Made by a program: the position numbers and the translations under genes. From assembly GCA_902594545.1 (NCBI GenBank), contig CACJMO010000002.1:62001-126000 (forward strand): 64,000 nucleotides of DNA. Reading direction: 5' to 3'. The notes below the pieces were generated by a model. That model saw only the letters and a list, made by a program, of their open reading frames with translations, ran no database searches and had not been told where the DNA came from. Of this stretch, positions 1 through 28,090 are shown one piece after another; position 1 is the stretch's first letter, and every line of letters starts with the position of its first letter. This DNA is from an uncultured SAR86 cluster bacterium (GTDB taxonomy: Bacteria; Pseudomonadota; Gammaproteobacteria; Magnimaribacterales; Magnimaribacteraceae).

Positions 1-177
1 CCATTTGCTAGTGCTATTGCGTGTTTTGTTCCAACATACTTAGCAAATTCTTTTTCAAAATTTTTGCCTTGTTCTCCCGTCCAGTAATTGACTTTATTAG
101 ACTTAAGCACGTCAGAAACTTTATTTATTTCTTCAGCAGAATAATGAGGCCATTGACCAAGTACTTTTTTTACCATC
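1..177 (-). CDS. DegT/DnrJ/EryC1/StrS-type sugar aminotransferase, N-terminal fragment (runs off window edge; PglE-like by context)
   Basis: Reverse complement of 1-177 reads MVKKVLGQWPHYSAEEINKVSDVLKSNKVNYWTGEQGKNFEKEFAKYVGTKHAIALANG, typical N-terminus of the DegT family; not in ORF track because truncated. Confidence 0.85.
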
Positions 178-789
178 TTATGTTCTTTTTAAACTCTTAG
201 TTTTTGTTGATGAGATGCTGATAATATCATCCTCTAAATCCTTGTTGATATAAGTCAAAGCGTCAACTTTATTATTTTTTCCTAGCTTCACGCCTTGATA
301 AACAAAGGCATTTGACCCAATTAGGCTTTCGCTACCTATACACACGTTCCCACTAATTCTTGCACCGGGCAATACGATAGTATTATTTCCCAAGTTAACA
401 TCGTGACCTATGGAACAATTTAAGTTTAACTGACAAAAATCACCTATTTTTGCATCAGAAGATATTGATGCATTAGCAGCTATGTAACAACCAACACCAA
501 TTTTTGCTGATTTAGCTATGTAAGCTGATCTATTGATAACAGTAAAAGGAATAAGCTTATTTTTTAAACAAAAACTTATACAGTCTTTTCGCAGAGATGC
601 TTCAGAAAAGCCTATATTAAAATGAATGTGATTAGCCTCCTGTAGGTCTAAGATTGAATTATCTTTGCTTTCTTCTCCATAGAAATACAATCTTTTAATT
701 TGATCAAAGTGGCCATCATAAGACTCCTGTACTACCTCTTCAATTTCTTTTGCAGTCGACTCGGTCCCAAAAATATAAAGTACTTTCAT
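178..789 (-). CDS. NeuD/PglD-family sugar O/N-acetyltransferase (left-handed beta-helix)
   Basis: N-terminal Rossmann-like segment then hexapeptide repeats (AKIGVGCYIAANASISSDAKIGDFCQLNLNCSIGHDVNLGNN). Confidence 0.85.
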   Translation of the reverse strand: MKVLYIFGTESTAKEIEEVVQESYDGHFDQIKRLYFYGEESKDNSILDLQEANHIHFNIGFSEASLRKDCISFCLKNKLIPFTVINRSAYIAKSAKIGVGCYIAANASISSDAKIGDFCQLNLNCSIGHDVNLGNNTIVLPGARISGNVCIGSESLIGSNAFVYQGVKLGKNNKVDALTYINKDLEDDIISISSTKTKSLKRT

Positions 790-796
790 GAAAATT

Positions 797-1393
797 TTAT
801 TTCTTCCTTAATACATCTAACCTTGGCATGATAGTCTCATTATGAGGTGAAATACCAGACCTAGTTATAACTATCTTAATAGTCAAGAATAGGATTTTTA
901 GATTAAGAAAAAAAGAACGATTTTGTACATAAAGGTTGTCGAAATAGAATTTTTCTTCCCAAGTGAGTGCGTTTCTTCCTTCTACCTGAGCCAAACCAGT
1001 CAAACCTGGCCTGACTTGATGTCTTTTTTTTTCTTCATCAGAGTAAAAGGGGAGGTATTCTGGTAGTAAAGGTCGCGGACCTATAAAACTCATATCTCCC
1101 TTTAAAATATTCAAAACAGAAGGCAGTTCATCCAAACTTGAAGAACGCAATAGTTGGCCCAATTTTGTTAATCTCTTCTCATCAGGTAATAAATTTCCCG
1201 AAGAATCATAAACTTCCTTCATAGTCTTCAGTTTAATTAACTTAAATTTTTTTTCGCTCTTGCCAATCCTCTCTTGAACAAATATTGGATTGGGGTCTAT
1301 AAAGAACACCACTAAGAGAATAATAAAGGTAAATGGAACAAATAAAAAAAGCAGTGTGAAAAGGGAAAATATAATATCTGCCGTTCTATTCAC
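797..1393 (-). CDS. Bacterial sugar transferase (initiating phosphoglycosyl transferase, PglC/WcaJ-like)
   Basis: FVQERIGKSEKKFKLIKLKTMK...LDELPSVLNILKGDMSFIGPRPLLPEYLP...RHQVRPGLTGLAQVEGRN. Start reassigned to GTG at 1393 (VNRTADIIFSLF) rather than the upstream ATG at 1444. Confidence 0.9.
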   Translation of the reverse strand: MNRTADIIFSLFTLLFLFVPFTFIILLVVFFIDPNPIFVQERIGKSEKKFKLIKLKTMKEVYDSSGNLLPDEKRLTKLGQLLRSSSLDELPSVLNILKGDMSFIGPRPLLPEYLPFYSDEEKKRHQVRPGLTGLAQVEGRNALTWEEKFYFDNLYVQNRSFFLNLKILFLTIKIVITRSGISPHNETIMPRLDVLRKK

Positions 1394-1394
1394 T

Positions 1395-2681
1395 TTAGTT
1401 TGAGGAAATCCATTTGACCATACTCTGCATTGGCAAGTAACCATCCCATGGATTCTGATATATTGACATAGAACCTAAATTAGGAAAGCGATCAACGCCA
1501 TATCTGGCCAGCTCAGTCATGACAAGAGGCTTGGCCTGAGGTGGGACAAACAAACCTACTGACTGTATATTAGAGGGAAGCATATTCCCTAGATTGTCTA
1601 TTGATTCAATTTCTGAGATAAAGATACTCCTTCCATAGAGTGGCTCTTCTAGTTTAGGTTTATCATACCTAATGAAGATATTCCAATTGCCTGTTTTGCT
1701 TGTTTTACCCTCCAAGGTATCTTGGGAGTTATAAATGAATTCTTTGAGTAGAATGTTAAAAGTATCAATTGGTTCCTTAGTGAGTTCATTAAGTCGTGAC
1801 TTTTTTTCAAATACCTCTTCTATAGCCTCTGCAATATATGAAAGATTGAATCTAGAACCTTTTTCTATTATTAAATTATGAGGAGCATTACATCCAGTTT
1901 GATCGAACGCATAAATATCATTAGCTAATTTTTCTGCCATGTCTTTGACATCATCTTCAGATTCCAGCTTAGCCGAAGAGACATAAGCTAAAGAAATTTT
2001 TGGCCCAAAAATTAAATCTCTACAATTAATTTTCTTTGGAAGGCCTGTAACTGACTCAACTGCATCTGCCCCTCCCCAACAAATTCTTATATCTGCAATA
2101 GTAGATAAAAGTGCTTGATTCTCATTATCTGATTTATCAATGTACACGAGAATTATATTTTCTAGTAACTTCTTTATAGTTGTCGATATTCTGCTCGAAA
2201 AAAACTCGTTATTCATAAGATCAAAAAGGAGATTTGGAAGCACGTCTTTGTAAGCTGAAGGAAGCTTAACAATACTTTTATTCTTTGTTAGCAAGGTTTG
2301 AAAAAGAGAGATAACACCAAGAACAGGAACATTTCCTGCTATCCAATGCACAGACAAACCTAGAGGCATTCCTAGTAGGTAATAATCGTATTGATCAATA
2401 TAAATTGGACTATCAAGTGATTCAGGATGTTTAAAGTTTTGATTCAATAATTTTTCTATATTTTTTTTTGCTAACCAAGGTATTAAAAAGCCTATGCCTT
2501 CTCTTTTTATTAAATCCTTCACACGGTTATCTTTTGATACCCAATATAACGAAACCGCATTATAAGCTTCCGTAATCTCATGAATATCTAATTCAAGAAG
2601 AGTGTTTTCTTTATCTACAAAATCTTTCAACTCTTCCAAGGGGTTTTTGGATCGGCTGTTTAAATTGAAATGTATTTCCAT
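1395..2681 (-). CDS. LuxC-like acyl-CoA/acyl-protein reductase
   Basis: LuxC-family pattern: LGLSVHWIAGNVPVLGVISLFQTLLTKNKSIVKLPS; DQTGCNAPHNLII around the presumed catalytic Cys; GVDRFPNLGSMSIYQNPWDGYLPM near C-terminus. Confidence 0.85.
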   Translation of the reverse strand: MEIHFNLNSRSKNPLEELKDFVDKENTLLELDIHEITEAYNAVSLYWVSKDNRVKDLIKREGIGFLIPWLAKKNIEKLLNQNFKHPESLDSPIYIDQYDYYLLGMPLGLSVHWIAGNVPVLGVISLFQTLLTKNKSIVKLPSAYKDVLPNLLFDLMNNEFFSSRISTTIKKLLENIILVYIDKSDNENQALLSTIADIRICWGGADAVESVTGLPKKINCRDLIFGPKISLAYVSSAKLESEDDVKDMAEKLANDIYAFDQTGCNAPHNLIIEKGSRFNLSYIAEAIEEVFEKKSRLNELTKEPIDTFNILLKEFIYNSQDTLEGKTSKTGNWNIFIRYDKPKLEEPLYGRSIFISEIESIDNLGNMLPSNIQSVGLFVPPQAKPLVMTELARYGVDRFPNLGSMSIYQNPWDGYLPMQSMVKWISSN

Positions 2682-3808
2682 TAAATGTAGTAATTATCGG
2701 GAAGAGTATCGCCACATCCTCTTTCTTCAGCTTTTTCTAACCTTGATAGAACTTTAAACTTGAGCACTTCTCGATTTCCCTCATTGTATCTTTCAGAAAT
2801 GTAGCCTAAATCATCATTCAGAATAGAGAATCCAGGATAACTCATTGGTAGCGCAGAGAAAAACTGAAGAAAACCTATTTCACCGTCCTCTAAAACTTTT
2901 AAAGTATTTGTATCGCGAACAATTACATGCGAGTAGTCGGACACCAAAGAACCTTCCTCACCTTTTCCTACGTATACTGTTCCTAATTGCTCGGTAAACC
3001 CATAAATATCCATTATGTTGTCTTCACTGATATTCAGCTTTAATTTTAACGCAGCATTTAGCTCCGTCTTTGATTTCTTTAAGTTCTGTAATTTTTTCCA
3101 GCCACCAAAATGAATCAAATGAGAATCTCTTCCTAAATTTTGAGCCTTAAAATTGTTATTTCCAGCCAGATATTGCCAAATCATATATGTATAGCCTATT
3201 ACAACCACCGCTTCTTTTGATGAAGTTTCAAGTAACAAACTTAACGCATCATTGTTTATCTTTAAGGATCCTTCCTCGTCTTGATCAAGCAAATAAGTTC
3301 TTGATTTAGAGGCCAATAAATAGCCTTGCATACCTGCCAAACGAGCAGAGATCGAACCATCATCACTGAGGGCTTCTTTGGGTTCTATATCTACGATAAA
3401 AAATGGTTTCTTATTTTTTCCTATGAATGATTTTAATATTTTTGTAAGAGCTTTAGTTTGGTTTACAGAAGTGCTGGAATCTAAATTAATAGAGCTCTTG
3501 AGCTGTGAAGAAGTTCCACTAGATCTAATTATCTTCTGAGAAACGGGGTTGCTGCTTAATGCAACGTGTTTAAAAATAGAACTAGGAAGGAAGGGAATGT
3601 CATCTATTTTCTTAATATTATCAGGACTAAATCCTTTCCTTTTTAGCCACATTCCATACTCTTCGCAATGTTTAGAGTGATATTCGACTTGTAATTTTGC
3701 TAAATCCAAAATAGTTTTTGATTTGAGCTCCTTGGATAACTCAAAAGGTTCCAACTCTAGAAGAGAATCAATTGATTTCTTTAATTCCATAAAAATTCTG
3801 AAATGCAC
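2681..3808 (-). CDS. LuxE-like acyl-protein synthetase
   Basis: IRSSGTSSQLKSSINLD, IMDIYGFTEQLGTVYVG, and C-terminal RLEKAEERGCGDTLPDNYYI with a Cys about 11 residues from the end. Start may be the internal Met at ~3790. Confidence 0.85.
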   Translation of the reverse strand: MHFRIFMELKKSIDSLLELEPFELSKELKSKTILDLAKLQVEYHSKHCEEYGMWLKRKGFSPDNIKKIDDIPFLPSSIFKHVALSSNPVSQKIIRSSGTSSQLKSSINLDSSTSVNQTKALTKILKSFIGKNKKPFFIVDIEPKEALSDDGSISARLAGMQGYLLASKSRTYLLDQDEEGSLKINNDALSLLLETSSKEAVVVIGYTYMIWQYLAGNNNFKAQNLGRDSHLIHFGGWKKLQNLKKSKTELNAALKLKLNISEDNIMDIYGFTEQLGTVYVGKGEEGSLVSDYSHVIVRDTNTLKVLEDGEIGFLQFFSALPMSYPGFSILNDDLGYISERYNEGNREVLKFKVLSRLEKAEERGCGDTLPDNYYI

Positions 3809-4838
3809 CGAATATATCAGCTTTTTCTAACTTTTTTTTCATAAGCTTCCAACAAGGATCAGCTTGGGCTCCTTCAATAATATCAGACAAAACATCTTCC
3901 TTCCCATTCAAACATTCCTTTATTTGAAAAATTCCATACTCTTGATTATAGGAGGAATAGTAATTTGATATCTTGGTGACCAGATCTGCAGGGAATTTTT
4001 CAAAAGTTGAGGAATCTTTAGCTTCTAATAATCGAATAGTGGGAACTAAAAATTCAGCAATTGCCTCAGTGTGCTTGACTTTTAATACCATCTCGGCAGA
4101 GTGGCTCAAAGCATGGCATAAACCTGCACCCGCATTATTCTGAGCCAAGCCGCCATGAAAAGACAACATACAAAGATGTTCAAGAAAATTTTTACTAGGG
4201 CTGCTAAAGTCTATTGTATTTCTAGAAATATAATTAAAGAAATAATCAAGAGTAGAATAAGATAGGTAATCTACGTAAGGATTAGCAAGAAATGATAGAG
4301 ACGATTCAATTAGATGAGTTAGAGAATCAATAGAACCTTCAAAAAAATCTCTTGGCTTGAGACTATCAAATAAATCAAAATCATATATAACCGTTTTGGG
4401 CATCATTATTTCATTGACCTCTATCGATTTAGTGGTTTGCTCGTTTATTATTGAAGTCATTGAACTTTCTGCTCCAGAGCCAATTCTTGAAGGGATGACA
4501 ACCAGCTGTATCTTTAAGTTTTTGTCATTCCCAATAAGAACAAGTCTCTTTGCATAATCTATGAGACTTCCTCCTCCAATTACAAAAATTCTATTAAACT
4601 TTTGTTGGCTTAATTGATTATATAAATCGTGCAAACTTGATAAAGAGTTTCTTTCACTCCCAATCTTAAGGTGCAACAGGTTTTCTCCCGTTATCCTAGA
4701 AATCCTCTCAAGGATACTTTCAAATTCAGAGTTATGGCCAGTTAAGAGGCAAGACTTATAATGAGAACTTAGTTCGATAGCTGAATATCCTTTTCTTCCT
4801 ATACCCAGGCTAGATATAAAATTCTGCTTAGCCATCAT
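3768..4838 (-). CDS. Iron-containing alcohol dehydrogenase family protein
   Basis: GGGSLIDYAKR, VIPSRIGSGAESS, SIDSLTHLIES and GLCHALSHSAE (metal-binding His/Asp pattern of Fe-ADH). Confidence 0.85.
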   Translation of the reverse strand: MMAKQNFISSLGIGRKGYSAIELSSHYKSCLLTGHNSEFESILERISRITGENLLHLKIGSERNSLSSLHDLYNQLSQQKFNRIFVIGGGSLIDYAKRLVLIGNDKNLKIQLVVIPSRIGSGAESSMTSIINEQTTKSIEVNEIMMPKTVIYDFDLFDSLKPRDFFEGSIDSLTHLIESSLSFLANPYVDYLSYSTLDYFFNYISRNTIDFSSPSKNFLEHLCMLSFHGGLAQNNAGAGLCHALSHSAEMVLKVKHTEAIAEFLVPTIRLLEAKDSSTFEKFPADLVTKISNYYSSYNQEYGIFQIKECLNGKEDVLSDIIEGAQADPCWKLMKKKLEKADIFGAFQNFYGIKEIN

Positions 4839-6243
4839 AGATTCCTTTTAAGATATTTGGGTCTCTGACTTTCTTTCCATTTTCAGTGAGAGGAATTTGC
4901 TTAATTAATAAGTATCCTCTGGGTTTGTAGTAATTAGGATAGTCTTTGAAAAGTCTATCAATTTCTTTATTTACAGTTTCATTCGTTAAAACTTCCTTAG
5001 ATGATATTAAAGTGATCGGTTTTTGGCCAAGAATTGGATCTTCTATTGGAAAACATATTGCTTTTTCAAAATATTCGGAACTTTCCACTATATCTTCTAT
5101 ATTTTCAGATTGGACTTTTTGTCCTCCAATGTTGATTTGGTTATCTGTTCTTCCTGTCAAAAAGACTTTTCCATTGTCTAATGTGCATATATCGCCAGTG
5201 GAAAACCATCCATCATTCAATTTATCTGAGTTAAATTCATCTTGTAAGTAGCCACTAAACAGATTGGTTCCTTTTAACAAAAGTTCACCTGAAAATAGAT
5301 CATCTTTTATTTTGAAGTGGCAGCCTGGCAAGGGATTACCTATCCATGCACTTTCTTCAGTAAAGTCATCATCTTTTCCTCTGGGTCTTATAAAAGATCT
5401 AGAACACTCTGTCATTCCATAATGATGAATTATTTCAGCTTTATTAAAATTTTCTTGAAGCCAGAGCCTAGATTTCATCTCTAAAGAACTGCTCCCAATT
5501 TCTAGATACCTAATATTAGCTGAAAATTCTATAGTTTTTTTTCTTAATAAAGATCGGATCAGCTCAATTGCAGATGGAACCATTGAGAGGCCAGTGATTG
5601 AGGTAGTTTTTGAGAATCTAAAAATCTCTGGAAATTGTTTCAATCCATCAGTCACTAAGGCCGAAGATCCGCTTAAAAACATTGTCCTCAATCTTGTTAA
5701 ACCAAAGGAATGATAGAAAGGCATGCTTAAAAGCTCTAAATCAGTTTCATTTTGCCTAAGAATATCAATTAAAGAATTTGCAACATGCAAATAGGCATCT
5801 TCACTAACTATTGCACCTTTTGGAAAACCGGTTGTTCCTGAAGTAAAGACAATATCCTTATTCATTCCGAGATTATTGTCTTTTTTACTCTCAATTCTTT
5901 CTACATCTGCTTTGTCAAAACCTTTTTGTAGGTCGACATTTTCAAAAAAAAGATCGATCGGATAATTATTTTTTATGACTTCTTTTATATCCCCTTGCAT
6001 AGATGGATTTACTATATAAATTGATCTACCGGAAGACTTAGCTGACAAATAAACTAAGGGCCAGAAGATATTATTGTCTGAGCTAATAGCTATAGGCTTA
6101 TTGGATGTGGATAAAAAATCTGATAATTGATCTATCAAATTTATACAGTCATTTCCATCAAGTTTAGACTCTAAGGAGTAAAGAAAAACTTTCGTCTTAT
6201 TTTTCTTAAGTTGCTTTATAAAAGAATCAAATAATACGGACAT
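4828..6243 (-). CDS. AMP-forming acyl/aminoacyl ligase (ANL superfamily)
   Basis: IVFTSGTTGFPKGAIVSEDA (P-loop), HHYGMTECSR, GWFSTGDICTLDNGKVFLTGRTDNQINIGGQKVQ, C-terminal LTENGKKVRD. Confidence 0.92.
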   Translation of the reverse strand: MSVLFDSFIKQLKKNKTKVFLYSLESKLDGNDCINLIDQLSDFLSTSNKPIAISSDNNIFWPLVYLSAKSSGRSIYIVNPSMQGDIKEVIKNNYPIDLFFENVDLQKGFDKADVERIESKKDNNLGMNKDIVFTSGTTGFPKGAIVSEDAYLHVANSLIDILRQNETDLELLSMPFYHSFGLTRLRTMFLSGSSALVTDGLKQFPEIFRFSKTTSITGLSMVPSAIELIRSLLRKKTIEFSANIRYLEIGSSSLEMKSRLWLQENFNKAEIIHHYGMTECSRSFIRPRGKDDDFTEESAWIGNPLPGCHFKIKDDLFSGELLLKGTNLFSGYLQDEFNSDKLNDGWFSTGDICTLDNGKVFLTGRTDNQINIGGQKVQSENIEDIVESSEYFEKAICFPIEDPILGQKPITLISSKEVLTNETVNKEIDRLFKDYPNYYKPRGYLLIKQIPLTENGKKVRDPNILKGIYDG

Positions 6244-6486
6244 CTAAAGTTTATTTTTTGTCATGACTATAAGCTTCTCTATAGTATCAACTCCTACAAC
6301 TTCATCGATTTCGAACTCAATATCTAATCTCTCTTCAATTTCCATAATAATCCTCATATGACCAGTAGAATCCCAACCTTCAACTTCTTCAAACATTGAG
6401 TCAAGTGTTAATAATGAAGCTGTTTCTTCAGAGAGCTCCAGACTTATAAGAAAAACGGATTGCATGAAGCTTAGATTTATTTCCAT
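6244..6486 (-). CDS. Acyl/peptidyl carrier protein
   Basis: 80 aa; EEVEGWDSTGHMRIIMEIEERLDIEF, with Ser in the phosphopantetheine-attachment context (DS-x-x-H/M). Confidence 0.88.
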   Translation of the reverse strand: MEINLSFMQSVFLISLELSEETASLLTLDSMFEEVEGWDSTGHMRIIMEIEERLDIEFEIDEVVGVDTIEKLIVMTKNKL

Positions 6487-6551: not shown

Positions 6552-7682
6552 TCAAAATGTACTAGGAGTGAAAGATAGCTGATCAATAATTTCAGCATTT
6601 ACTTTATTCACGTCGAACTTTTCTTCAACAAGTTTTCTGGATTCTAAGCCCATACTTAACGCAAGCTCTTCATTCTGAATAAATTTTTCTATAGCTTCAA
6701 CTAATGCTCCTTTGTCTTTTACGTTTATGAGAAATCCATTGAGACCGTCAATCACTGTCTCACGACATCCAGGCACATCAGTTGTTATTATTGCTCTTCC
6801 TGTAGACATTGCTTCCAAAGTTGATTTTGGTAAACCCTCATGATAGGAGGGTAGTATAAAACATGAGGATTTTGCTAATACTCCTCTGACATCATTAATC
6901 TCTCCTAAATAATTTACACTTCCATCCAATATAAAGTCGTCTAAAAACGAAGGTTTAATTGAAGTCGGATTTGAATCAAAAGGTCCTACAAGAGTGAAAT
7001 TTACCTCATTATAATTTGAGACAATCTCTCTTGCAGCGTACAGATATTCTTTCACTCCTTTATCTTCAAGGAGTCTTGAGATCATAATAAATGTAAATTT
7101 ATTTTTTACTGGTTCAAATTTGAAATGTCTTGTATCTACTCCTGATCCATTTATTAATTTAATTTTTTGATTTGGTTTTATTAATTTGTTTACCTTAAAA
7201 AAATTGAGATTATCCTTATTTTGAAAAAAGATTGTTTGAGAATGATACAGTGAAATTTTATAAAGAGTTTTTAAAATGAACTTTATCAATTTATATAAAT
7301 TAGTTGAATAAAAGGCAGATCCCAAACCAGTTATCAATGGGTAATTCTTGTATTTAAAGTAGAAATTCAGTAATCCGGTATAGAAAATTGGTTTTATGGT
7401 ATAAGGTATTACTATATCCGGGTTGAGTCTTTTAAATATAAAAAACAACCTGATTAAGATGAGTAAATCCATAAGGGGGTTTTTACCTGTTCTTATTAAG
7501 TCTACATCTACGAACTGTATACCGTATTTGGTTAATTCAGCTTTAACTTCTTTATCGAAAGGAGAAATGGCAATCACTTCATGACCTAGCTCCTTTAATT
7601 GAACTAATAATTTAAGTCTAAAATTGATAAAAGATTTAGGATAACTGCCAAAGACTACTATTTTATCCATTTTTTTGGTCAT
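6552..7682 (-). CDS. Glycosyltransferase family 4 (PglA-like)
   Basis: GT4 pattern: SRLLEDKGVKEYLYA, FILPSYHEGLPKSTLEAMSTGRAIITTDVPGCRETV. Confidence 0.9.
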   Translation of the reverse strand: MTKKMDKIVVFGSYPKSFINFRLKLLVQLKELGHEVIAISPFDKEVKAELTKYGIQFVDVDLIRTGKNPLMDLLILIRLFFIFKRLNPDIVIPYTIKPIFYTGLLNFYFKYKNYPLITGLGSAFYSTNLYKLIKFILKTLYKISLYHSQTIFFQNKDNLNFFKVNKLIKPNQKIKLINGSGVDTRHFKFEPVKNKFTFIMISRLLEDKGVKEYLYAAREIVSNYNEVNFTLVGPFDSNPTSIKPSFLDDFILDGSVNYLGEINDVRGVLAKSSCFILPSYHEGLPKSTLEAMSTGRAIITTDVPGCRETVIDGLNGFLINVKDKGALVEAIEKFIQNEELALSMGLESRKLVEEKFDVNKVNAEIIDQLSFTPSTF

Positions 7683-9603
7683 GAAGCCATTGTTGGAATA
7701 TTAAAATATTCCATAAATGTGATTGCCAGTTTCTGTTGCCAGATAAATGTTCTTTCCACTTCTTTCTTATAACTACAGAGTCGAGTAGACCATCTTGACC
7801 GATTCTGTGAGCACTCAATAGATCCTCGGCCCATTCTCTCAGAGGACCTCTCAACCAATCTCCTATAGGCACGCTAAAACCTTTTTTAGGTCTATCAATT
7901 AAGTGCCTAGGAACATGCTGTAATAGAATATTTCTTAAAATTGATTTCTGAATTGGCATTTGTGAGGAATTATCTATCTTTTGTTCAATCGGTATTCTCC
8001 AAGAAAACTCTATGACTCTATGATCTAGAAATGGAATTCTTCCTTCAAGACTTACTGACATAGCAGCACGATCAACCTTTGTTAAGATATCATTTAATAA
8101 ATAATTTTTAATATCACTTAACATTAGTCCTTCAAGAAATGTAACCCTGCTATCCAAATCATAAGTTAAGTCAGAAAATTTATTTTCAGTATGAAGTAAT
8201 GGTACTCCTTCTTTTGTCCAATGATTGGATATAAGTTTTTTATAGATTTCCCTTCCAGAAGAAGAGTCTAACAATTGCATTCCTTTTGAAAGTCTGTCTC
8301 CAACAAAGGGTTTTTCGAAAAAATTTCCTAATTGGTTTAAAAGAAAAATACTGTTATTGCTTAGTTGTTGAGGAAGGCTTCTCCTCAATAATGATGGTAA
8401 CTTAGATATTAGGTTCCACATCTTTTGAGTTTGAATATACCTAGTATATCCACCAAAAATTTCATCACCCGCATCTCCAGATAAACAAACTGTGACATCT
8501 TTTCTAGCCAACTTACTCACTAAAATTGTTGGAATCTGAGATGAATCAGCAAAGGGCTCATCATATATGGTTGAGAGAGAAGGAATTATGTCTAAAGAGT
8601 CTTGGGGAGTTAAAATAAGTTCTTGATGGTCTGTATTCAAAAAATTTGCAATATCCTTGGCATAACCTGCTTCGTTATATCTTTCATCTTCAAAACCGAT
8701 TGAAAAAGTCTTAATAGGTTTTGAAGAATATTTCTGCATCATTGCAACAATTAAACTCGAATCAATACCGCCAGAGAGAAAAGCACCTAACGGAACATCA
8801 GAAATCATTTGATCGGAAATAGCAGATTCCAAGACTTCAATTAAACCAGCCATAGCCTCTTCTTTAGAAGTAATAATATTCTCTTTTCCCCTTTGTACCA
8901 CCTCATCAAGACTCCAATAAGACTCTTCATTAAACACGCCTTTGTCTTTAGAAATATACAAGATCGTTCCTGGCTTTACTTTTTTTATACCTTTATAAAT
9001 ACTTTGTTGTCCTTGTAAGGTGTTATATTGCAGATATCCATCTAGAGCCTCTAGGGATATATCTGATTGAAAAGACTTGTGTTTTCTTAATGCTTTTAAT
9101 TCAGATGAGAAAAGCATTACTTTGTTTTTACCAATTCCTTGATAACCATAATATAAAGGCTTTTCTCCAGTTCTGTCTCTGATAAGTATTAAGACTTTCT
9201 CTTTTGTGTCCCAGACCGATATTGCAAACATACCGATAGACTTTTTCATAGTCTCTTTGATGCCCCAATTATCAAATCCATTGAGAAGTGTCTCAGTGTC
9301 AGAGGTACTCTCCCATAAAGGATTATAAGTAAGGTCGAGTTGTTTCCTTAAATCGAGATGATTGTAAATCTCCCCATTGAAAGCAATAATATATCTACCA
9401 CTTTTTGAAATCATTGGCTGATTTCCTCTTGAAGAAACATCTAAAATAGATAGCCTCCTGTGGCCTAAAAAGATTTCAGAAGAAATATCTTTCCATATTC
9501 CATCTGAATCAGGTCCTCGATGTCGTAGGGCATAAGACATTTCATTAATAGCTACTCTATTAATGTGCTCTTCACCTCCTAAGACTCCAACTATTCCACA
9601 CAT
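7663..9603 (-). CDS. Asparagine synthase (glutamine-hydrolysing) family amidotransferase, copy 1
   Basis: MCGIVGVLGG N-terminal Cys glutaminase; AFLSGGIDSSLIVAMM; CLSGDAGDEIFGGYTRY. Confidence 0.93.
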   Translation of the reverse strand: MCGIVGVLGGEEHINRVAINEMSYALRHRGPDSDGIWKDISSEIFLGHRRLSILDVSSRGNQPMISKSGRYIIAFNGEIYNHLDLRKQLDLTYNPLWESTSDTETLLNGFDNWGIKETMKKSIGMFAISVWDTKEKVLILIRDRTGEKPLYYGYQGIGKNKVMLFSSELKALRKHKSFQSDISLEALDGYLQYNTLQGQQSIYKGIKKVKPGTILYISKDKGVFNEESYWSLDEVVQRGKENIITSKEEAMAGLIEVLESAISDQMISDVPLGAFLSGGIDSSLIVAMMQKYSSKPIKTFSIGFEDERYNEAGYAKDIANFLNTDHQELILTPQDSLDIIPSLSTIYDEPFADSSQIPTILVSKLARKDVTVCLSGDAGDEIFGGYTRYIQTQKMWNLISKLPSLLRRSLPQQLSNNSIFLLNQLGNFFEKPFVGDRLSKGMQLLDSSSGREIYKKLISNHWTKEGVPLLHTENKFSDLTYDLDSRVTFLEGLMLSDIKNYLLNDILTKVDRAAMSVSLEGRIPFLDHRVIEFSWRIPIEQKIDNSSQMPIQKSILRNILLQHVPRHLIDRPKKGFSVPIGDWLRGPLREWAEDLLSAHRIGQDGLLDSVVIRKKWKEHLSGNRNWQSHLWNILIFQQWLHDQKNG

Positions 9604-15765: not shown

Positions 15766-16665
15766 TTATTTGATCCTTTTCCCAGGATTTCCAACATAGA
15801 CTGAATCAGGTTCAGTATCTCTTAATACGACACAACCGATACCAACAGTAGTATTCTTAGCCAAATTTACACCTTCTAATATGGAAGAGTTAACACCTAA
15901 CCAGCAATTTTCTTGAATTTTAACACTCCCACAAACAACCACTCCTGCGGTAATAGCAACATTTCTTCCTATATGACAATTATGAGCTAGATGAACATGA
16001 TCATCAGATTTAACACCATCTTCTATGATGGTATTATTGATAGTTCCTCTGCAAGTAGTACTGTTAGACCCTAACTCCACATTGTCACCTATAATGACTG
16101 TTCCAGAATGGTGCATTTTAACTAAAGCCTCATCATCATCTCTTGCCACCCCAAAACCCTCTTCTCCAACCACAGCACAGCTCTTTAGAACGCAATTCGT
16201 TCCAATTTCTACATCCCTATATACAGTTACGTGGTTTTGAAGAATAGTTCCTTCACCAATTTTAGTATTTTCACCTACTACACAATATGGACCAATAGAC
16301 ACACCCTTTCCTAAATCACACGACTCATGAATAAATGCTGTCTTGTGGATTATGGGATCAGGGCTGTTTTTAAAAAATTTCTCTGATATTTTAGCAAAAG
16401 CAAGGCGAGGATCATTAACGACAGCCACTATCAAATTAGATGCTTCAGGAATTTTAATCTCATCATTAATTATTAGTAAAGGAGCTTTTATGGATTCGAT
16501 ATCTAGATCGATAGAATTTGACCATACAATGGTGTTCTCAGAGGATTTATCATGGGTTGAAAAGCCAACTAAAGCTTGTTCATGTAGGTTTTTATTGTCA
16601 TTGTAAACTTCAGCTTGCATTGCTGAAGAAAGGTAAGACAAAATTTCACTAATATTTATAGACAT
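15766..16665 (-). CDS. LpxD-like hexapeptide acyltransferase
   Basis: Hexapeptide repeats; LAHNCHIGRNVAITAGVVVCGSVKIQENCWLGVNSSI resembles LpxD/sugar N-acyltransferases. Confidence 0.8.
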   Translation of the reverse strand: MSINISEILSYLSSAMQAEVYNDNKNLHEQALVGFSTHDKSSENTIVWSNSIDLDIESIKAPLLIINDEIKIPEASNLIVAVVNDPRLAFAKISEKFFKNSPDPIIHKTAFIHESCDLGKGVSIGPYCVVGENTKIGEGTILQNHVTVYRDVEIGTNCVLKSCAVVGEEGFGVARDDDEALVKMHHSGTVIIGDNVELGSNSTTCRGTINNTIIEDGVKSDDHVHLAHNCHIGRNVAITAGVVVCGSVKIQENCWLGVNSSILEGVNLAKNTTVGIGCVVLRDTEPDSVYVGNPGKRIK

Positions 16666-18434: not shown

Positions 18435-19484
18435 CTAAAAAGCGTTTAGTTTTAAGCCTAGTCCAGATTTTTGTGTCTCCTCAATAGCTTCAAGTACTGA
18501 ATTTCCTTCCAAACGTGAACGAGATGCTATTTCACCAACCTTTAAACCTGCTGTATGAAGATCAACCAAGGGTTTTGGGCCTACATATTCTGTTGTCAAA
18601 GACATGTATCCAAATGGAGCAATCTCTTCAGGCCATATCTTCATATCTCTCATATTAAGAAATGATTTATCTACATTACCGCATATATGAATCAATTGCT
18701 TATCTTTAATATTATCAGGATCTATCACCGAATCCTTACCTATTATTTGATAAGGAAAATTATGCTCAGCCAAAATTATTGCATCTGCATTCTGTAAATT
18801 CTTGAGAATTTCTATTTCTTTATTAGAAATTTCTTCATTTAGGACAAGTTGTGTAGAACTAGCACCTATGCTTTGAAGAGTTTCATGAATGTAACTTCCA
18901 AAAGGATCTGATCCTATAACAATAATATTAGAAGAATAAATTTCTATATTTCTTTCGAAGAGCAACTTAGCAGCAAGCAGGCCAACATACTTATAAGTAT
19001 TCAATCTGGTATCTCTTTCATTTGTTCCGATTACTGGAATATCCTTAGATACACAATAGTTAACATCAATATCTTCTTCTCTTAATTCCCAAGGCTCCCA
19101 CATCAGAGAAATGACGGCATTTGAAGGCAACTCATCTATTAATTGTTTGTTTATTGGTCTCACAAAACCAAGATTAGTAACTATATTAATGCCTTTTGCC
19201 ACCTCATGAGGCGGTTGATCAGTAAACTCTATATTATTTATAGATAATGAATTTGCATTATTTTGACAAAAATCTATAACTTGATTGGCTGAACCATAAG
19301 AAGAATCTTTGGTAACTGCAATTACCTTATTGGCATTTGCCATAGCGGCAATTAAACAAGTCGATACAAAATTTCCACTTGCAGCTTCAGTGAGAACATT
19401 TAAACCACTTAGATCCAAATCCATAACCTTTATAGAATCTTTAATTAGGGTCTCTAATCTGGTGAGGTCAAAGTGTTTGGACAT
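18435..19484 (-). CDS. Rossmann-like protein of unknown specificity in polysaccharide cluster
   Basis: 349 aa ORF, tightly linked to neighbours; LTEAASGNFVSTCLIAAMANANKVIAVTKDS and IIVIGSDPFGSYIHETLQSIGAS suggest nucleotide-binding folds; no specific family recognised. Confidence 0.6.
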   Translation of the reverse strand: MSKHFDLTRLETLIKDSIKVMDLDLSGLNVLTEAASGNFVSTCLIAAMANANKVIAVTKDSSYGSANQVIDFCQNNANSLSINNIEFTDQPPHEVAKGINIVTNLGFVRPINKQLIDELPSNAVISLMWEPWELREEDIDVNYCVSKDIPVIGTNERDTRLNTYKYVGLLAAKLLFERNIEIYSSNIIVIGSDPFGSYIHETLQSIGASSTQLVLNEEISNKEIEILKNLQNADAIILAEHNFPYQIIGKDSVIDPDNIKDKQLIHICGNVDKSFLNMRDMKIWPEEIAPFGYMSLTTEYVGPKPLVDLHTAGLKVGEIASRSRLEGNSVLEAIEETQKSGLGLKLNAF

Positions 19485-21352
19485 TAAAAATTAATATCTA
19501 GATATTCATTTACGTTAAGTAAAGACCAAATAAATAATCTTCTGTTGCTTAAGCCGTTCAAATGCTGATCAATTATTTCATTTGTACCTTTGAAATCTAA
19601 ATAGTTGTAAATAGGAGCAGAAGTATCCTTCAACTTTTTATTGACATAATCAATACTATCTCCCTTGAACCAACTTGCATCGGGAGAGCTGAAACCCTGC
19701 TTTTCGGACTTAGAAATCTCATCTGGAACATAGCGTGACATAACGTCTCTTAAAATTTGCTTACCTTCATTCGATTTTTGAAAAATCTTAGACTGCTTGT
19801 TGCCCACTGTATTTTCATTCATTGTTTTTATTTCAGATAGATTTCTTATTTTCAAAGAAACAGGACATGACATAGAAAATTCTACTAAGTCATTATCCAT
19901 AAACGGAACTCGGGTTTCTAAGCTATGCGACATACTTATTTTATCCTCGATCACAAATAAACCATGAAGAAAAGTCTTAGCCTCAAAATAGAGACTGTTA
20001 TTAATTGAATCCTCAAGAGTATCTTGTTTTTTATCTGTGTTAAGGTAGACGGCTCTAAATATTTCCTTAAGGTCCAGGTCCTTAACATCCTTCCAAATAG
20101 GAGAAAATATGGTCTCTCTTTCTTCCTTTTTTAGTAATCGTTGCCAAAATTCATAATACTGATTTACGTATTCATTAAAATTTTTTGTATTTGTTGCCCT
20201 GTAATATCTCCAAGGATAACCTCCAAATAATTCATCGCCTCCAGCTCCAGACAAAACTACTTTTACAAACTTACTTGCAAGTTTTGCTGCATAAAAATTA
20301 GGGTAACTCTGACCGACTCTTGGTTCTTCGAGTATATGAGAAAGTTTATTTAGGCTCCTTTCCATATCTCCAGACTTAAGCACCATTTCGTAATGTTCAG
20401 TTTTGAAAAGATAAGACATATACTCAGCCTTTTCTCTTTCGTCGAAGGCCAGTTCTAAACCAGAAGCAGATCTAAGATCAAAACCGCATGTAAATGTATT
20501 AATGAAAGGCAATTTTTTTGAAGCTAAAGCTGTCAAAGTACCTGAATCCATACCACCTGATAGGTAAGACCCTAATTCAACATCAGCCACTAATTGCCGA
20601 GAAACGGCTTGCTGGAGGAGTCTGTCAAGCTCTTCTTCTAATTCTATTTTGTTATCAGTGAGAGCAGCTTTAAATTGATAATCCCAATAAATCTCTTTAG
20701 TTATTTGGTTAGTTTTAGTACTGATAGAAATAATTGATGCTGGTTCTACGATATGAATACCTTTAAGCAGGGTTTTATTTGTGAAAAAATTCTGAAAAGT
20801 AAAATATTCTACTAAAGCTTCCTTATCTAGTTCCTTCTTTGTACTTGGATGCTCTAAAAGAGCTTTCTGTTCTGATCCAAAAACTAAACAATTACCCCAA
20901 TTAGCGTAATATAAAGGTTTAATTCCGTATCTGTCTCTAGCCAGATAAACCATTCCATCTTTACGATCATATATGGCAAAAGCGAACATACCATTAAATT
21001 TATTTACAGACTTTTTCCCCCAATGCTGCCAGGCCTTAAGAACAACCTCTGAGTCTGTTTCAGAAATGAATCTGTAACCTAAATTTATAAGTTCAGATCT
21101 TATTTCTTTGAAATTATAAACCTCTCCGTTGTATGTAAGAACAAACCTCTTATTGTCAGAATGCATAGGCTGTGCGCCTCTCTCAGACAAATCAATAATC
21201 GATAGCCTTCTATGACCCAGAGCTACGTTTCCCTCTAAAAAAAAGCCTTCTCCATCAGGTCCTCTATGAGCAATGGAATCTGTCATGTTCTTTAAAACAA
21301 GTTTCTCAGACAGAACTCCATTGGAGTTTACATAACCTGCAATGCCACACAT
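19484..21352 (-). CDS. Asparagine synthase (glutamine-hydrolysing) family amidotransferase, copy 2
   Basis: MCGIAGYVNSNG; LGSYLSGGMDSGTLTALA; LSGAGGDELFGGYPWRY. Confidence 0.93.
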   Translation of the reverse strand: MCGIAGYVNSNGVLSEKLVLKNMTDSIAHRGPDGEGFFLEGNVALGHRRLSIIDLSERGAQPMHSDNKRFVLTYNGEVYNFKEIRSELINLGYRFISETDSEVVLKAWQHWGKKSVNKFNGMFAFAIYDRKDGMVYLARDRYGIKPLYYANWGNCLVFGSEQKALLEHPSTKKELDKEALVEYFTFQNFFTNKTLLKGIHIVEPASIISISTKTNQITKEIYWDYQFKAALTDNKIELEEELDRLLQQAVSRQLVADVELGSYLSGGMDSGTLTALASKKLPFINTFTCGFDLRSASGLELAFDEREKAEYMSYLFKTEHYEMVLKSGDMERSLNKLSHILEEPRVGQSYPNFYAAKLASKFVKVVLSGAGGDELFGGYPWRYYRATNTKNFNEYVNQYYEFWQRLLKKEERETIFSPIWKDVKDLDLKEIFRAVYLNTDKKQDTLEDSINNSLYFEAKTFLHGLFVIEDKISMSHSLETRVPFMDNDLVEFSMSCPVSLKIRNLSEIKTMNENTVGNKQSKIFQKSNEGKQILRDVMSRYVPDEISKSEKQGFSSPDASWFKGDSIDYVNKKLKDTSAPIYNYLDFKGTNEIIDQHLNGLSNRRLFIWSLLNVNEYLDINF

Positions 21353-22309: not shown

Positions 22310-23473
22310 CTAAAAGCTATTTTTTACCTTCTCAATGATGTATTGTTGTTCACCCTCACTCAGTCCATGGAAAAGCGGAAGGGAGATGCTGCAATCATTC
22401 AATACGTAAGAATTATAGAAACTTTCTTTCTCTATGTTATATTTATTTTTATAGAAACTTAACATATGCACGGCATGAGTAGCCGGTCTAGTTGATATGC
22501 CTAAGTTAAGAAGATAATCCATCCATTCATTTCTAGCTTCGTGCGTTTCTTTGATTTTATTTTTTTGTATCTCAAGAGGTTTAAAGATGCAAGGGTAAGA
22601 TTGATAGCTATGTTCATAGTCATTTCCAACTTTTGGTGTTTGGAGCCACTCTATATCTGAAAACTCTTCGTCATAGATGTTTGCCAACCTTTGTCGCTCT
22701 TTAAGTATTTGGTCAGCTCTATCCATCTGTGCACTTCCTAATGCAGCCTGTAGGTCGGTCATCCTTTGGTTATAACCAGCATCGGGGTGATCAGCAAGAA
22801 GGTAAGGTCTTTGCCCGAGATGCCTTTGTAAATCTGACATCTCAGCTCCATGATCTCTCAATCTTCTAATTTTCTTTGTTAATGATTCGTTATTGCACGT
22901 AACCATTCCTCCCTCACCAGTGGTAATAGATTTTCTTGGATGAAAACTAAAACAACCTGAATCTCCAAAACCTCCAACATGTTTTTTTTTGTATTTTGTT
23001 CCAAATCCACAAGCTGCATCTTCTACTACCGCTAGGTCATAATTTTTTGCAATCTTACTTATTGGATCCATATCTGCAGATAGACCAAAAAGGTGGACAG
23101 GAAGTATTGCCTTCGTTTGTTTTGTTATTTTCTCTTCAATCTGACTTACATCTATATTGAAAGTATCCAGGTTAACATCGCAGAAAACAACTTTTCCTCC
23201 TAAATGTTCAACAACATTAGCAGTAGAAATCCAAGTAAATGCGGGAACAATTGCTTCATCTCCTTTTTTGAATCCTAAAGCTGCTAACGAAAGATGAAGA
23301 GCAGAAGTACAAGAAGTAACAGCCACTGAGTAAGGATTTTTTGTAAATGTGGACCATTTTGTTTCGAACTCTTGAACTTTTGGCCCTTGCACTAACCAAC
23401 CAGACTCTAAAGGTTCAAGAACTTTATTTATCTCTTGCTTAGTAAGGGAGGTTCTTGCTATTGGGATTTTCAT
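22310..23473 (-). CDS. DegT/DnrJ/EryC1/StrS aminotransferase
   Basis: SGWLVQGPKVQEFETKW; VTSCTSALHLSLAALG; VVEDAACGFGTKYKKKHVGGFGDSGCFSFHPRKSITTGEGGMV (PLP Lys). Confidence 0.95.
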   Translation of the reverse strand: MKIPIARTSLTKQEINKVLEPLESGWLVQGPKVQEFETKWSTFTKNPYSVAVTSCTSALHLSLAALGFKKGDEAIVPAFTWISTANVVEHLGGKVVFCDVNLDTFNIDVSQIEEKITKQTKAILPVHLFGLSADMDPISKIAKNYDLAVVEDAACGFGTKYKKKHVGGFGDSGCFSFHPRKSITTGEGGMVTCNNESLTKKIRRLRDHGAEMSDLQRHLGQRPYLLADHPDAGYNQRMTDLQAALGSAQMDRADQILKERQRLANIYDEEFSDIEWLQTPKVGNDYEHSYQSYPCIFKPLEIQKNKIKETHEARNEWMDYLLNLGISTRPATHAVHMLSFYKNKYNIEKESFYNSYVLNDCSISLPLFHGLSEGEQQYIIEKVKNSF

Positions 23474-24441
23474 CTATTTCTTTTTCTCCAGAGTATAAGT
23501 TTCTCTAATCCCTCTTTTAAACCATAATCATATTTAAAATTTAAATCTTGTTCAGCTTTTAAAGGGCAACCTATTCTGTTTTGAACCAATCTTCGAGCAT
23601 CATCTTCATTGTAAGGTTTATATTTAACTACTAAGTCTGATTCTTTCAATTCAAGGATTAAATCACAAAGATCTTTGATGGAAGTCTGGATTCCAGACCC
23701 CACATTATAAAATTCATCTGTTGCTGAAGACTCTAAAGCTTTTATATTGGCCTTTGCAACGTCTTCAACATAAATGAAGTCATAAGCTTGAGTACCATCG
23801 CCATTGATTTCAGGGGCTTCATTTGAGTCTATTTTATTAAGCATTATAGGTATAACACCCGTATATGCTGCTGTCTGATCTTGGTGAGGACCATAGACAT
23901 TCATATACCTTAATCCAACATAATCTAATCCATACCTGTCATAGAAGGCTCTGCACATTGCTTCTCCGGCAATTTTAGTTGCCCCATAAAAGTTTTTATT
24001 CATAAATGGGTGTTCCTCAGTCATTGGAACTTCAACAGCATCACCGTATACAGAAGCTGAAGAAGAGTATATGAGCTTCTTGATTCCGTGTCTTACACAT
24101 GCTTCTAAGATATTAAAAGTTCCCTCAATATTCACATGAAAGGCAGTTCTAGGAAAATCTTTACAGTGCAATAGCCACATTGCAGCTGTATGAATTACAT
24201 AATCACAACCTTCAATAGCTTTATCAAGAACATCTACATCTCTTATATCTGCTCCATCAAGAAAAATACTTAAGCGTTCATCTTCAATAAATGGCTCAAG
24301 ATAACTTTCTTTACCTCTAGCAAAATTATCATAAACGACAATTTCTCTCACATCTGTTTTTAATAGTTCTTCTACTACGTGGCTACCTATGAAACCTGCA
24401 CCTCCTGTAACAAGTATCTTTGTATCATTTAAATTATTCAT
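23470..24441 (-). CDS. NAD-dependent nucleotide-sugar epimerase/dehydratase
   Basis: ILVTGGAGFIGSHVVEELL; YSSSASVYGD; NFYGATK (SDR YxxxK). Confidence 0.93.
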   Translation of the reverse strand: MNNLNDTKILVTGGAGFIGSHVVEELLKTDVREIVVYDNFARGKESYLEPFIEDERLSIFLDGADIRDVDVLDKAIEGCDYVIHTAAMWLLHCKDFPRTAFHVNIEGTFNILEACVRHGIKKLIYSSSASVYGDAVEVPMTEEHPFMNKNFYGATKIAGEAMCRAFYDRYGLDYVGLRYMNVYGPHQDQTAAYTGVIPIMLNKIDSNEAPEINGDGTQAYDFIYVEDVAKANIKALESSATDEFYNVGSGIQTSIKDLCDLILELKESDLVVKYKPYNEDDARRLVQNRIGCPLKAEQDLNFKYDYGLKEGLEKLILWRKRNR

Positions 24442-24445
24442 AATA

Positions 24446-25537
24446 TTATTTGGCAGAAAAATCTTTAATGGATTTCATAATCATATCTTGATCTTCTTCA
24501 GTTAAATATGGATGCATAGGCAAAGACAAAACCCTTGTTGAAACTTCATCTGAGACTGGTGTTTTACCCCTACAAAAGTTTATATAAGCAGGGGACTGAT
24601 TGATTGGAAATTTATAATGCACAGCCGTTGGGATTTTTTTTTGTTTTAGATGATTTGTTAGTTTCTCTCGATGATCTGAAAAGATTGTGTATTGCGCAAA
24701 TACACTTGTTCGATCTTCCTTTTGTTTAACTCTTTCTATCGATTGACTATCAAAAAAATTATTATATCGATCGCCAATGGTAAGTCTCCTCTCTATTTCT
24801 GACGGAAATCCTTCTAGTTTGGAAAGAACTATTGCAGCTTGTAGTGTATCCATTCTGCCTCCAACTCCAATGCGAGTATGCCAGTGCTTACTTTCGGCTC
24901 CATGAAGTCTTATTTCCTTACAAATTTGAGCAATATTTTCATCATTAGTGAAGATAGCTCCGCCATCTCCATAACACCCCAAAGGCTTACTTGGGAAAAA
25001 ACTCGTGCATCCAATATCTGACAAATTGCAAGAGATGTCTTCTTTATACTTAGCACCAAAACTCTGAGCTGCATCTTCAATAACAATCAAACCATATTTC
25101 CTTGCAATTTGATTTATCTCTTGCATATCTGAAGGTTGACCGTAAAGGCTTACGGGCATAATAGCTTTTGTTTTTTCAGTGACTGCAGATTCAATTTTAC
25201 TTTGATCGATGTTACAGGTGCTTGATTCAATATCAACAAACACTGGTATTGCTCCTAGCAAGGCTATAACTTCAGCCGTAGAGACCCAAGTAAAAGGAGT
25301 TGTAATAACTTCATCTCCGGGATTTATACCAATGGCCATTAAGCTGATTAATAGTGCATCAGTTCCACTTGAAACTGTTATACAGTGCTTGGTGCTTGTA
25401 AAAGTCTCTAATTTTTCTTCAAGCTCGAAGATCTCCGGTCCCATTATGTAATTACCGTGATCTAGCACCTTTTTAATCCTCCTCTCAAGATCATCTTTAA
25501 TGCGGTCTTGCTGGGTCTTTAAATCAATGAATTCCAT
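24446..25537 (-). CDS. DegT/DnrJ/EryC1/StrS aminotransferase (WbpE/WlbC-like)
   Basis: MEFIDLKTQQDRIKDDLERRIKKVLDHGNYIMGPEIFELEEKL; VSSGTDALLISLMAIGINPGDEVITTPFTW; TSFFPSKPLGCYGDGGAIF. Confidence 0.92.
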   Translation of the reverse strand: MEFIDLKTQQDRIKDDLERRIKKVLDHGNYIMGPEIFELEEKLETFTSTKHCITVSSGTDALLISLMAIGINPGDEVITTPFTWVSTAEVIALLGAIPVFVDIESSTCNIDQSKIESAVTEKTKAIMPVSLYGQPSDMQEINQIARKYGLIVIEDAAQSFGAKYKEDISCNLSDIGCTSFFPSKPLGCYGDGGAIFTNDENIAQICKEIRLHGAESKHWHTRIGVGGRMDTLQAAIVLSKLEGFPSEIERRLTIGDRYNNFFDSQSIERVKQKEDRTSVFAQYTIFSDHREKLTNHLKQKKIPTAVHYKFPINQSPAYINFCRGKTPVSDEVSTRVLSLPMHPYLTEEDQDMIMKSIKDFSAK

Positions 25538-25546
25538 TTTTAAATA

Positions 25547-27066: not shown

Positions 27067-27078
27067 TAGCGATCAGAT

Positions 27079-28089: not shown

Positions 28090-28090
28090 C

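What the first reader, a model, noticed from the sequence alone, without database searches (positions are those of the whole stretch)
1395..6486. LuxC/LuxE-like acyl-reductase set with its own carrier protein, AMP-ligase and Fe-alcohol dehydrogenase inside an O-antigen locus
Five contiguous, overlapping or abutting minus-strand genes encode ACP (6244-6486), ANL ligase (4828-6243), Fe-ADH (3768-4838), LuxE-like (2681-3808) and LuxC-like (1395-2681). LuxC/LuxE are classically the aldehyde-generating arm of bacterial bioluminescence, but no luxAB luciferase is in this window and the set sits between a GT4 and a PglC-like sugar transferase. Proposed logic: the ligase loads a carboxylate onto the ACP, LuxE takes the acyl group on its Cys, LuxC reduces it to an aldehyde, and Fe-ADH could take it to an alcohol. 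The product might be a sugar substituent or small amino-alcohol/alkyl decoration. I do not know of a biochemically assigned function for this combination in a glycan locus.
Basis: partly seen in the sequence, partly recalled or inferred. Interest (0 to 1): 0.78.

Follow-up and report, generated by a model that had tools for sequence, protein, structure and literature searches.

The report
Hydroxy-acid module for O-antigen sugar
Five genes in a marine bacterium's O-antigen cluster, including cousins of two light-organ (lux) enzymes, most likely make a small hydroxy-acid that caps an amino sugar, as the same-ordered genes are thought to do in the cholera bacterium's O1 antigen; it is a new member of a known pathway whose chemistry has not been rebuilt in the papers I could read.

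Summary
The five genes are real: ACP, AMP ligase, Fe-alcohol dehydrogenase, LuxE, LuxC, overlapping or abutting, with active-site residues intact. The combination is not unassigned. It has the gene order of Vibrio cholerae O1 rfbK-L-M-N (VC0248-VC0251: carrier protein, ligase, Fe-ADH, LuxE/LuxC fusion), followed there by an acyltransferase (VC0252); these genes are assigned to 3-deoxy-L-glycero-tetronate (2,4-dihydroxybutanoate), the N-acyl group of the O1 antigen. The order recurs in Vibrio, Bacteroidota, Terriglobia, Verrucomicrobia and Clostridia, mostly beside glycan genes; a sister form uses an SDR reductase instead of the Fe-ADH. Just beyond the window edge the operon continues with a QuiNAc4N-type aminotransferase (527 bits to Pcryo_0638) and a WbpM-type dehydratase; PglC-like and NeuD-like genes lie inside. 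Best reading: LuxE, LuxC and ADH reduce one carboxylate of a small dicarboxylate to a hydroxy-acid, the ligase loads it on the ACP, and the NeuD-like enzyme acylates UDP-QuiNAc4N, the initiating sugar. The exact acid and the transferase are inferred.

The parts
6244..6486 (-). dedicated acyl carrier protein (RfbK-like), 80 aa
   Evidence: PF00550 20.9 bits; D39-S40 conserved in 18 set-associated ACPs; separate from a housekeeping-type ACP on C8
4828..6243 (-). ANL-family AMP ligase (RfbL/WbeL-like), 471 aa
   Evidence: PF00501 2.2e-29; ANL motifs and Lys457 conserved; V. cholerae WbeL is also 471 aa (PMC3441752)
3768..4838 (-). iron-type alcohol dehydrogenase (RfbM-like), 356 aa, divergent
   Evidence: PF00465 9.4e-12, PF25137 1.8e-10; four metal ligands invariant; AlphaFold model pLDDT 86, Foldseek 6e-18 to Fe-ADHs
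2681..3808 (-). LuxE-type acyl-protein synthetase (matches the LuxE part of RfbN), 375 aa; a start at the ATG 18 bases inside is also possible
   Evidence: PF04443 2.9e-63; Cys365 invariant; PDB 7xc6 LuxE 4.4e-38 with a profile
1395..2681 (-). LuxC-type acyl reductase (matches the LuxC part of RfbN), 428 aa
   Evidence: PF05893 4.7e-56; Cys264 aligned to 7xc6 LuxC
797..1444 (-). PglC/WcaJ-type initiating sugar phosphotransferase
   Evidence: PF02397 5.4e-53; overlaps LuxC by 50 bases at the called start
178..789 (-). NeuD/PglD-like left-handed beta-helix N-acyltransferase, proposed end of the module; catalytic His129 kept, C-terminal GNPA(K/R) CoA loop replaced
   Evidence: TIGR03570 1.4e-33 but under its cut-off; three closest relatives among the loci held all sit beside Fe-ADH-type sets; alignment A4
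1..176 (-). start of a DegT aminotransferase that continues outside the window (G000:C2:61001-62176), QuiNAc4N type; followed outside by a WbpM/PglF-type 4,6-dehydratase (G000:C2:59030-60955)
   Evidence: 527 bits over 384 residues to Pcryo_0638, PDB 7l7x; PF02719 5.4e-120 for the dehydratase; DNA read as L007
6552..7682 (-). GT4 glycosyltransferase just upstream in the direction of transcription (context, not part of the module)
   Evidence: PF00534 2.9e-29

Best explanation
The set is an rfbKLMN-type hydroxy-acid module joined to a QuiNAc4N (bacillosamine-type) initiating-sugar module. LuxE adenylates one carboxylate of a small dicarboxylic acid (malate, if the product is the same as in V. 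cholerae) and takes the acyl group on Cys365; LuxC reduces the thioester to the semialdehyde; the Fe-ADH reduces that to an omega-hydroxy acid such as 2,4-dihydroxybutanoate. The ANL ligase then adenylates the remaining carboxylate and loads it on the dedicated ACP. The NeuD-like enzyme transfers it to the 4-amino group of UDP-2-acetamido-4-amino-2,4,6-trideoxy-glucose, made by the WbpM-type dehydratase and the DegT aminotransferase, and the PglC-like enzyme puts that sugar on undecaprenyl phosphate as the first O-antigen sugar. Shown: genes, order, families, active-site residues, recurrence, neighbouring sugar genes. From literature: the tetronate assignment in V. cholerae O1. Inferred: the substrate, the order of steps, NeuD-like as the transferase, and the position acylated.
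For: Gene order matches VC0248-VC0252: RfbK carrier and RfbL ligase for 2,4-dihydroxybutanoic acid (PMC12208996); [quoted passage not shown] 'tetronate biosynthesis (VC0248-VC0252)' and loss of O1 antigen in a wbeL deletion (PMC3441752). The Fe-ADH-containing order recurs in about 20 loci of several phyla, 11 of them exactly ACP-LIG-ADH-LuxE~LuxC with LuxE and LuxC fused as in RfbN. The window LuxE groups with Fe-ADH-set LuxEs; the Fe-ADH label changes 6 times on the tree against a mean of 25 and a minimum of 19 when shuffled, though the deep node has low support. Glycan genes lie beside the set in 15 of 16 sampled set loci (two or more in 10) against 0 of 20 control stretches. The aminotransferase is 527 bits to Pcryo_0638, an enzyme with measured kinetics and a structure, acting on UDP-4-keto-6-deoxy-GlcNAc. 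A PglC-like gene with the set also occurs in L060, L082, L090, L093 and L128. The NeuD-like protein lacks the C-terminal Asn-Pro CoA loop, and its three closest relatives (L077, L084, L145) all sit beside Fe-ADH sets. Two separate adenylating enzymes, LuxE and the ligase, fit a substrate with two carboxylates. Marine O-antigens do carry such groups: 4-hydroxybutyramido sugars, N-(3-hydroxybutyryl) bacillosamine (PMC3210612).
Against: The V. cholerae O1 proteins themselves could not be fetched, so membership rests on gene order and annotation, plus Vibrio fortis-type sets. The ADH is only 20-24% identical to other set ADHs and the ACP barely reaches the Pfam cut-off. NeuD-like may simply be an acetyltransferase, as Pcryo_0637 is, and an LpxD-like N-acyltransferase at 15766-16665 is another possible user of the acyl-ACP. 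Some NeuD-type enzymes beside other sets also lack the GNPA loop without clear meaning, and some set-associated ones keep it. No gmd passes its cut-off in the held genome, so the perosamine part is absent as far as tested. Related modules carry extra enzymes (transketolase halves, ThDP enzyme, hotdog protein), so the acid clearly varies between members. The V. cholerae pathway is itself called putative.
Confidence: 0.7

Rival explanations
1. Same hydroxy-acid module, but the acyl-ACP is used on another sugar of the locus by another transferase (for example the LpxD-like enzyme at 15766-16665), while the NeuD-like enzyme only acetylates QuiNAc4N.
For: The LpxD-like protein gives 185-195 bits to LpxD, an acyl-ACP-using family, and the locus has other amino-sugar genes (22310-27066). 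Pcryo_0637, of the NeuD/PglD class, uses acetyl-CoA.
Against: The LpxD-like gene is 9 kb from the set; the NeuD-like gene is in the same tight run, has lost the CoA loop, and its nearest relatives sit beside Fe-ADH sets.
Confidence: 0.18
2. One reading: the ligase loads a mono-carboxylate on the ACP, LuxE takes it from the ACP, and LuxC and ADH release an aldehyde or alcohol used as an alkyl or amino-alcohol decoration.
For: All enzymes are present; the chemistry is formally possible.
Against: LuxE has its own ATP-binding motifs and needs no ACP donor; no enzyme for attaching an alcohol or aldehyde was recognised next to the set; the assigned product in V. cholerae is an N-acyl hydroxy-acid.
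Confidence: 0.05
3. Long-chain fatty acyl or 'liposugar' decoration, as suggested for flagellin islands with luxE and luxC.
For: Proposed in PMC7874193 and PMC4875605 from annotation of the related SDR-type set.
Against: Reducing a fatty acid would give an alcohol, not something an ACP-dependent N-acyltransferase can use; the O1 antigen group is a C4 hydroxy-acid; LuxE and LuxC here are only about 22-25% identical to true lux enzymes.
Confidence: 0.05
4. Bioluminescence remnant or other lux-type aldehyde supply.
For: LuxC and LuxE families.
Against: No luciferase family member in the held genome; real lux operons in the sample (L039, L040) have luciferase genes between luxE and luxC and no ACP, ligase or ADH.
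Confidence: 0.01

Closest known systems
Vibrio cholerae O1 rfbKLMNO / wbeKLMNO (VC0248-VC0252), 3-deoxy-L-glycero-tetronate module
   Same: Carrier protein, ligase (471 aa in both), Fe-ADH, LuxE and LuxC in the same order, an acyltransferase downstream, inside an O-antigen locus
   Different: LuxE and LuxC are separate genes here; a PglC-like gene lies between LuxC and the acyltransferase; the neighbouring sugar genes point to QuiNAc4N rather than perosamine; product untested
Flagellin glycosylation island sets of Aeromonas (group II) and Enterobacteriaceae: ACP, 3-oxoacyl-ACP reductase (SDR), AMP ligase, luxE, luxC
   Same: Same four core families beside nonulosonic acid and glycosyltransferase genes (PMC7874193, PMC4875605)
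   Different: An SDR replaces the Fe-ADH; linked to pse genes and flagellin, not to PglC and QuiNAc4N
Psychrobacter cryohalolentis Pcryo_0612/0638/0637 pathway to UDP-QuiNAc4NAc
   Same: Dehydratase, aminotransferase (527 bits to 0638) and a NeuD/PglD-like transferase
   Different: There the transferase uses acetyl-CoA; here it lacks the CoA loop and sits with an acyl-ACP module
luxCDABE bioluminescence operon
   Same: LuxE and LuxC families and their catalytic Cys
   Different: No luciferase; dedicated ACP, ligase and Fe-ADH instead; about 22-25% identity

Membership tests
rfbKLMNO (tetronate) module | carrier protein, ligase, Fe-ADH, LuxE, LuxC contiguous in that order | tested here: met
   VC0249-VC0252 order, RfbK
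rfbKLMNO (tetronate) module | LuxE and LuxC fused in one protein (RfbN) | tested here: not met
   separate overlapping ORFs 2681-3808 and 1395-2681; unfused Fe-ADH sets also in L070, L071, L073, so I do not treat fusion as defining the kind
rfbKLMNO (tetronate) module | linked N-acyltransferase that uses the loaded carrier | tested here: inconclusive
   NeuD-like gene at 178-789 is in the same run; its acyl donor is not known
rfbKLMNO (tetronate) module | perosamine genes (gmd, perosamine synthase) as the acceptor pathway | tested here: not met
   no gmd over cut-off in the held genome, 71% complete; perosamine synthase not searched for
rfbKLMNO (tetronate) module | direct sequence homology to VC0248-VC0252 | not tested
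   V. cholerae O1 sequence not obtained; Vibrio sets L126 and L155-L157 used instead
rfbKLMNO (tetronate) module | product is a 2,4-dihydroxybutanoyl amide on the sugar | not testable with these tools
   needs chemistry
luxCDABE bioluminescence | luciferase luxA/luxB | tested here: not met
   PF00296 absent from the held genome
flagellin island ACP-SDR-ligase-luxE-luxC set | SDR (3-oxoacyl-ACP reductase) in the set | tested here: not met
   Fe-ADH in its place
UDP-QuiNAc4NAc pathway | 4,6-dehydratase and Pcryo_0638-type aminotransferase | tested here: met
   (by sequence)
UDP-QuiNAc4NAc pathway | acetyl-CoA-dependent NeuD/PglD transferase | tested here: inconclusive
   catalytic His kept, C-terminal CoA loop replaced

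The most novel reading that the evidence does not exclude
The NeuD-like protein is an acyl-ACP-dependent (not CoA-dependent) 4-N-acyltransferase that has lost the CoA loop and puts a hydroxy-acid made by the LuxE/LuxC/Fe-ADH route on UDP-QuiNAc4N before PglC-type initiation, so that the very first O-antigen sugar carries a carrier-protein-made substituent.
Probability: 0.42. Interest if true: 0.5.

Novelty: new member of a known kind. Interest (0 to 1): 0.36.

Why it matters
The V. cholerae O1 tetronate pathway has been called putative since 1995; the literature held here describes it from sequence and mutants only, and the related sets in flagellin islands have been read as fatty-acid or 'liposugar' genes. 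The order conserved across phyla, the two-adenylation logic, and a free-living marine member with separate LuxE and LuxC enzymes make the pathway directly testable in vitro. If right, it would explain hydroxy-acyl amides in many bacterial surface glycans.

Tried and rejected
Viral contigs: no relatives of the LuxE. Plasmids: 32 records with distant LuxE relatives (those listed 25-33% identical), mainly Priestia and Rhizobium. V. cholerae O1 sequence: not among the 80 kept loci; 228 Vibrio-genus genomes gave 4 full LuxE-LuxC fusions, and the three loci read lie in legionaminic-type operons, not perosamine ones. Long-chain and luminescence readings were considered and disfavoured. The ADH fold search shows only the general Fe-ADH fold and does not single out a substrate; its best sequence hit in the PDB is named Cvir-Hbd2 (8.7e-14) and it has a 4-hydroxybutyrate dehydrogenase NCBIfam hit far under the cut-off (7.9e-16): suggestive only. 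The control for glycan context uses 20 stretches from the same genomes; the glycan queries come from this window and two related loci, so they favour glycan genes like those here, and only one locus of the phylum sample with the full set has an Fe-ADH.
Full report
Observation. The five genes exist as described, on the minus strand, in one overlapping run, with the named Pfam families and intact catalytic residues. The run does not stop at the window edge. L007 shows NeuD-like (178-789), then a DegT aminotransferase from window base 176 outward, then a 641-aa WbpM/PglF-type dehydratase. From the GT4 to the dehydratase the genes follow each other with overlaps or short gaps. The genome is a 71% complete draft of 1.34 Mb; it is in the same class as the genus of Vibrio fortis, so a gammaproteobacterium. 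None of the 18 genus mates searched has LuxE, and 4 of 101 genomes in the relatives search do, the window's own included, so the set is accessory.

What it is. The literature holds an ordered equivalent. In V. cholerae O1, VC0248-VC0252 are assigned to tetronate biosynthesis (PMC3441752). VC0249 is RfbL, the ligase for 2,4-dihydroxybutanoic acid that passes it to CoA or the carrier RfbK (PMC12208996). [quoted passage not shown] PMC4772473 states that RfbN holds a LuxE domain and cites Morona et al. 1995 for the pathway. WbeL is 471 aa, as is the window ligase, and a wbeL deletion loses the O1 antigen.

Recurrence. In 399 genomes of the phylum, 28 have LuxE over the cut-off. Of 31 neighbourhoods read (those of this sample plus two relatives), 16 hold LuxE, LuxC, ligase and ACP; 15 of those 16 have at least one glycan gene nearby and 10 have two or more, against 0 of 20 control stretches. 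Two loci are genuine lux operons, with luciferase genes (PF00296, checked in L039) and with neither ACP nor ligase. In named genomes, 71 of the best 80 LuxE relatives hold the four core families, 17 of them with an Fe-ADH. The order ACP-LIG-ADH-LuxE-LuxC, with LuxE and LuxC fused or not, is found in Vibrio, Bacteroidota, Terriglobia, Verrucomicrobia, Clostridia and Succinivibrio records. Many other sets carry an SDR instead of the Fe-ADH, as in the published flagellin islands. On a LuxE tree the Fe-ADH label is clustered (6 changes against a shuffled minimum of 19); the window's sister is a SAR11 single-cell record (L068, 50% identity); the deep node is poorly supported.

How it works. LuxE is an AMP-forming enzyme with its own ATP motifs and acyl-accepting Cys (established for LuxE; motifs seen), so two adenylating enzymes, LuxE and the ligase, act in one pathway. 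That is explained if a dicarboxylate is reduced at one end by LuxE, LuxC and the ADH and then activated at the other end by the ligase for loading on the ACP; malate would give 2,4-dihydroxybutanoate and succinate 4-hydroxybutyrate. This is inference from enzyme chemistry. The acceptor is suggested by the neighbouring sugar genes: the aminotransferase is a close homologue (527 bits over 384 residues) of Pcryo_0638, which makes UDP-2-acetamido-4-amino-2,4,6-trideoxy-glucose, and PglC-type enzymes start chains. The NeuD-like protein keeps the catalytic His but has replaced the C-terminal GNPA(K/R) loop; in Pcryo_0637 and its kin the Asn-Pro bond of the last turn changes state with CoA. Its three best relatives in the loci held (L077, L084, L145) are all in Fe-ADH sets, and the nearest two also lack the loop. 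This suggests, without proving, a donor other than acetyl-CoA. In Vibrio, Carboxylicivirga and Hungatella sets a different protein, with a tandem-GNAT-like predicted fold, follows LuxE-LuxC, so the transferase is probably exchangeable. Marine O-antigens with 4-hydroxybutyramido sugars, N-(3-hydroxybutyryl) bacillosamine and a 4-(2-hydroxyglutaryl)amido 2,4,6-trideoxyglucose are known (PMC3210612).

Limits. The ADH is divergent (20-24% to other set ADHs). The acid, the transferase and the acylated position are inferred. Verdict: a real, conserved module, a new member of a known kind, with a corrected mechanism.

Noticed in passing
L106, L092, L119, L078, L093, L099, L102, L144: LuxE/LuxC/ligase/ACP sets (rumen and other Bacteroidales, Alphaproteobacteria, Spirochaetia records) carry two ORFs of about 270 and 325 aa; in L106 these are the two halves of a transketolase (PF00456; PF02779 plus PF02780), with SDR and KAS III-like genes. 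A different, unexplained acid or sugar is probably built from the aldehyde.
   Followed up: partly
L009, L080, L097, L100, L116, L127, L140, L147: LuxE/LuxC sets joined to a ThDP enzyme (PF02775/PF02776/PF00205 in L009) and a NeuB-like synthase, in most of them also a hotdog-like protein: another variant.
   Followed up: partly
L041-L046: One family of the phylum has an Fe-ADH, a LuxE-LuxC fusion and an AMP ligase with no ACP found and no glycan genes nearby: possibly a different use of the same enzymes.
   Followed up: no
L126:11484-12551, L155:5379-6419, L156:14616-15752, L077:11499-12554, L130:7022-8038: A 340-380 aa protein (no Pfam hit for the L126 copy) following the LuxE-LuxC fusion; predicted tandem-GNAT-like fold (Foldseek E about 5e-12 to 6e-11 to VipF and MAB_4324, TM about 0.4-0.5), a candidate N-acyltransferase of other set members.
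   Followed up: partly
window 15766-16665: LpxD-like 299-aa N-acyltransferase inside the O-antigen locus, below the LpxD cut-offs; may use an acyl-ACP.
   Followed up: partly
L118: ACP-ligase-LuxE-LuxC run on a contig of a Nitrosopumilus single-cell genome (archaeon); contamination not excluded.
   Followed up: no
window 7663-9603, 19484-21352, 22310-29368: Two asparagine-synthase-like amidotransferases, and a run of UDP-GlcNAc C6-dehydrogenase (TviB-like), Gfo/Idh oxidoreductase, DegT aminotransferase and LbH acetyltransferase that looks like a diacetamido-uronic acid pathway: rest of the O-antigen repeat.
   Followed up: partly
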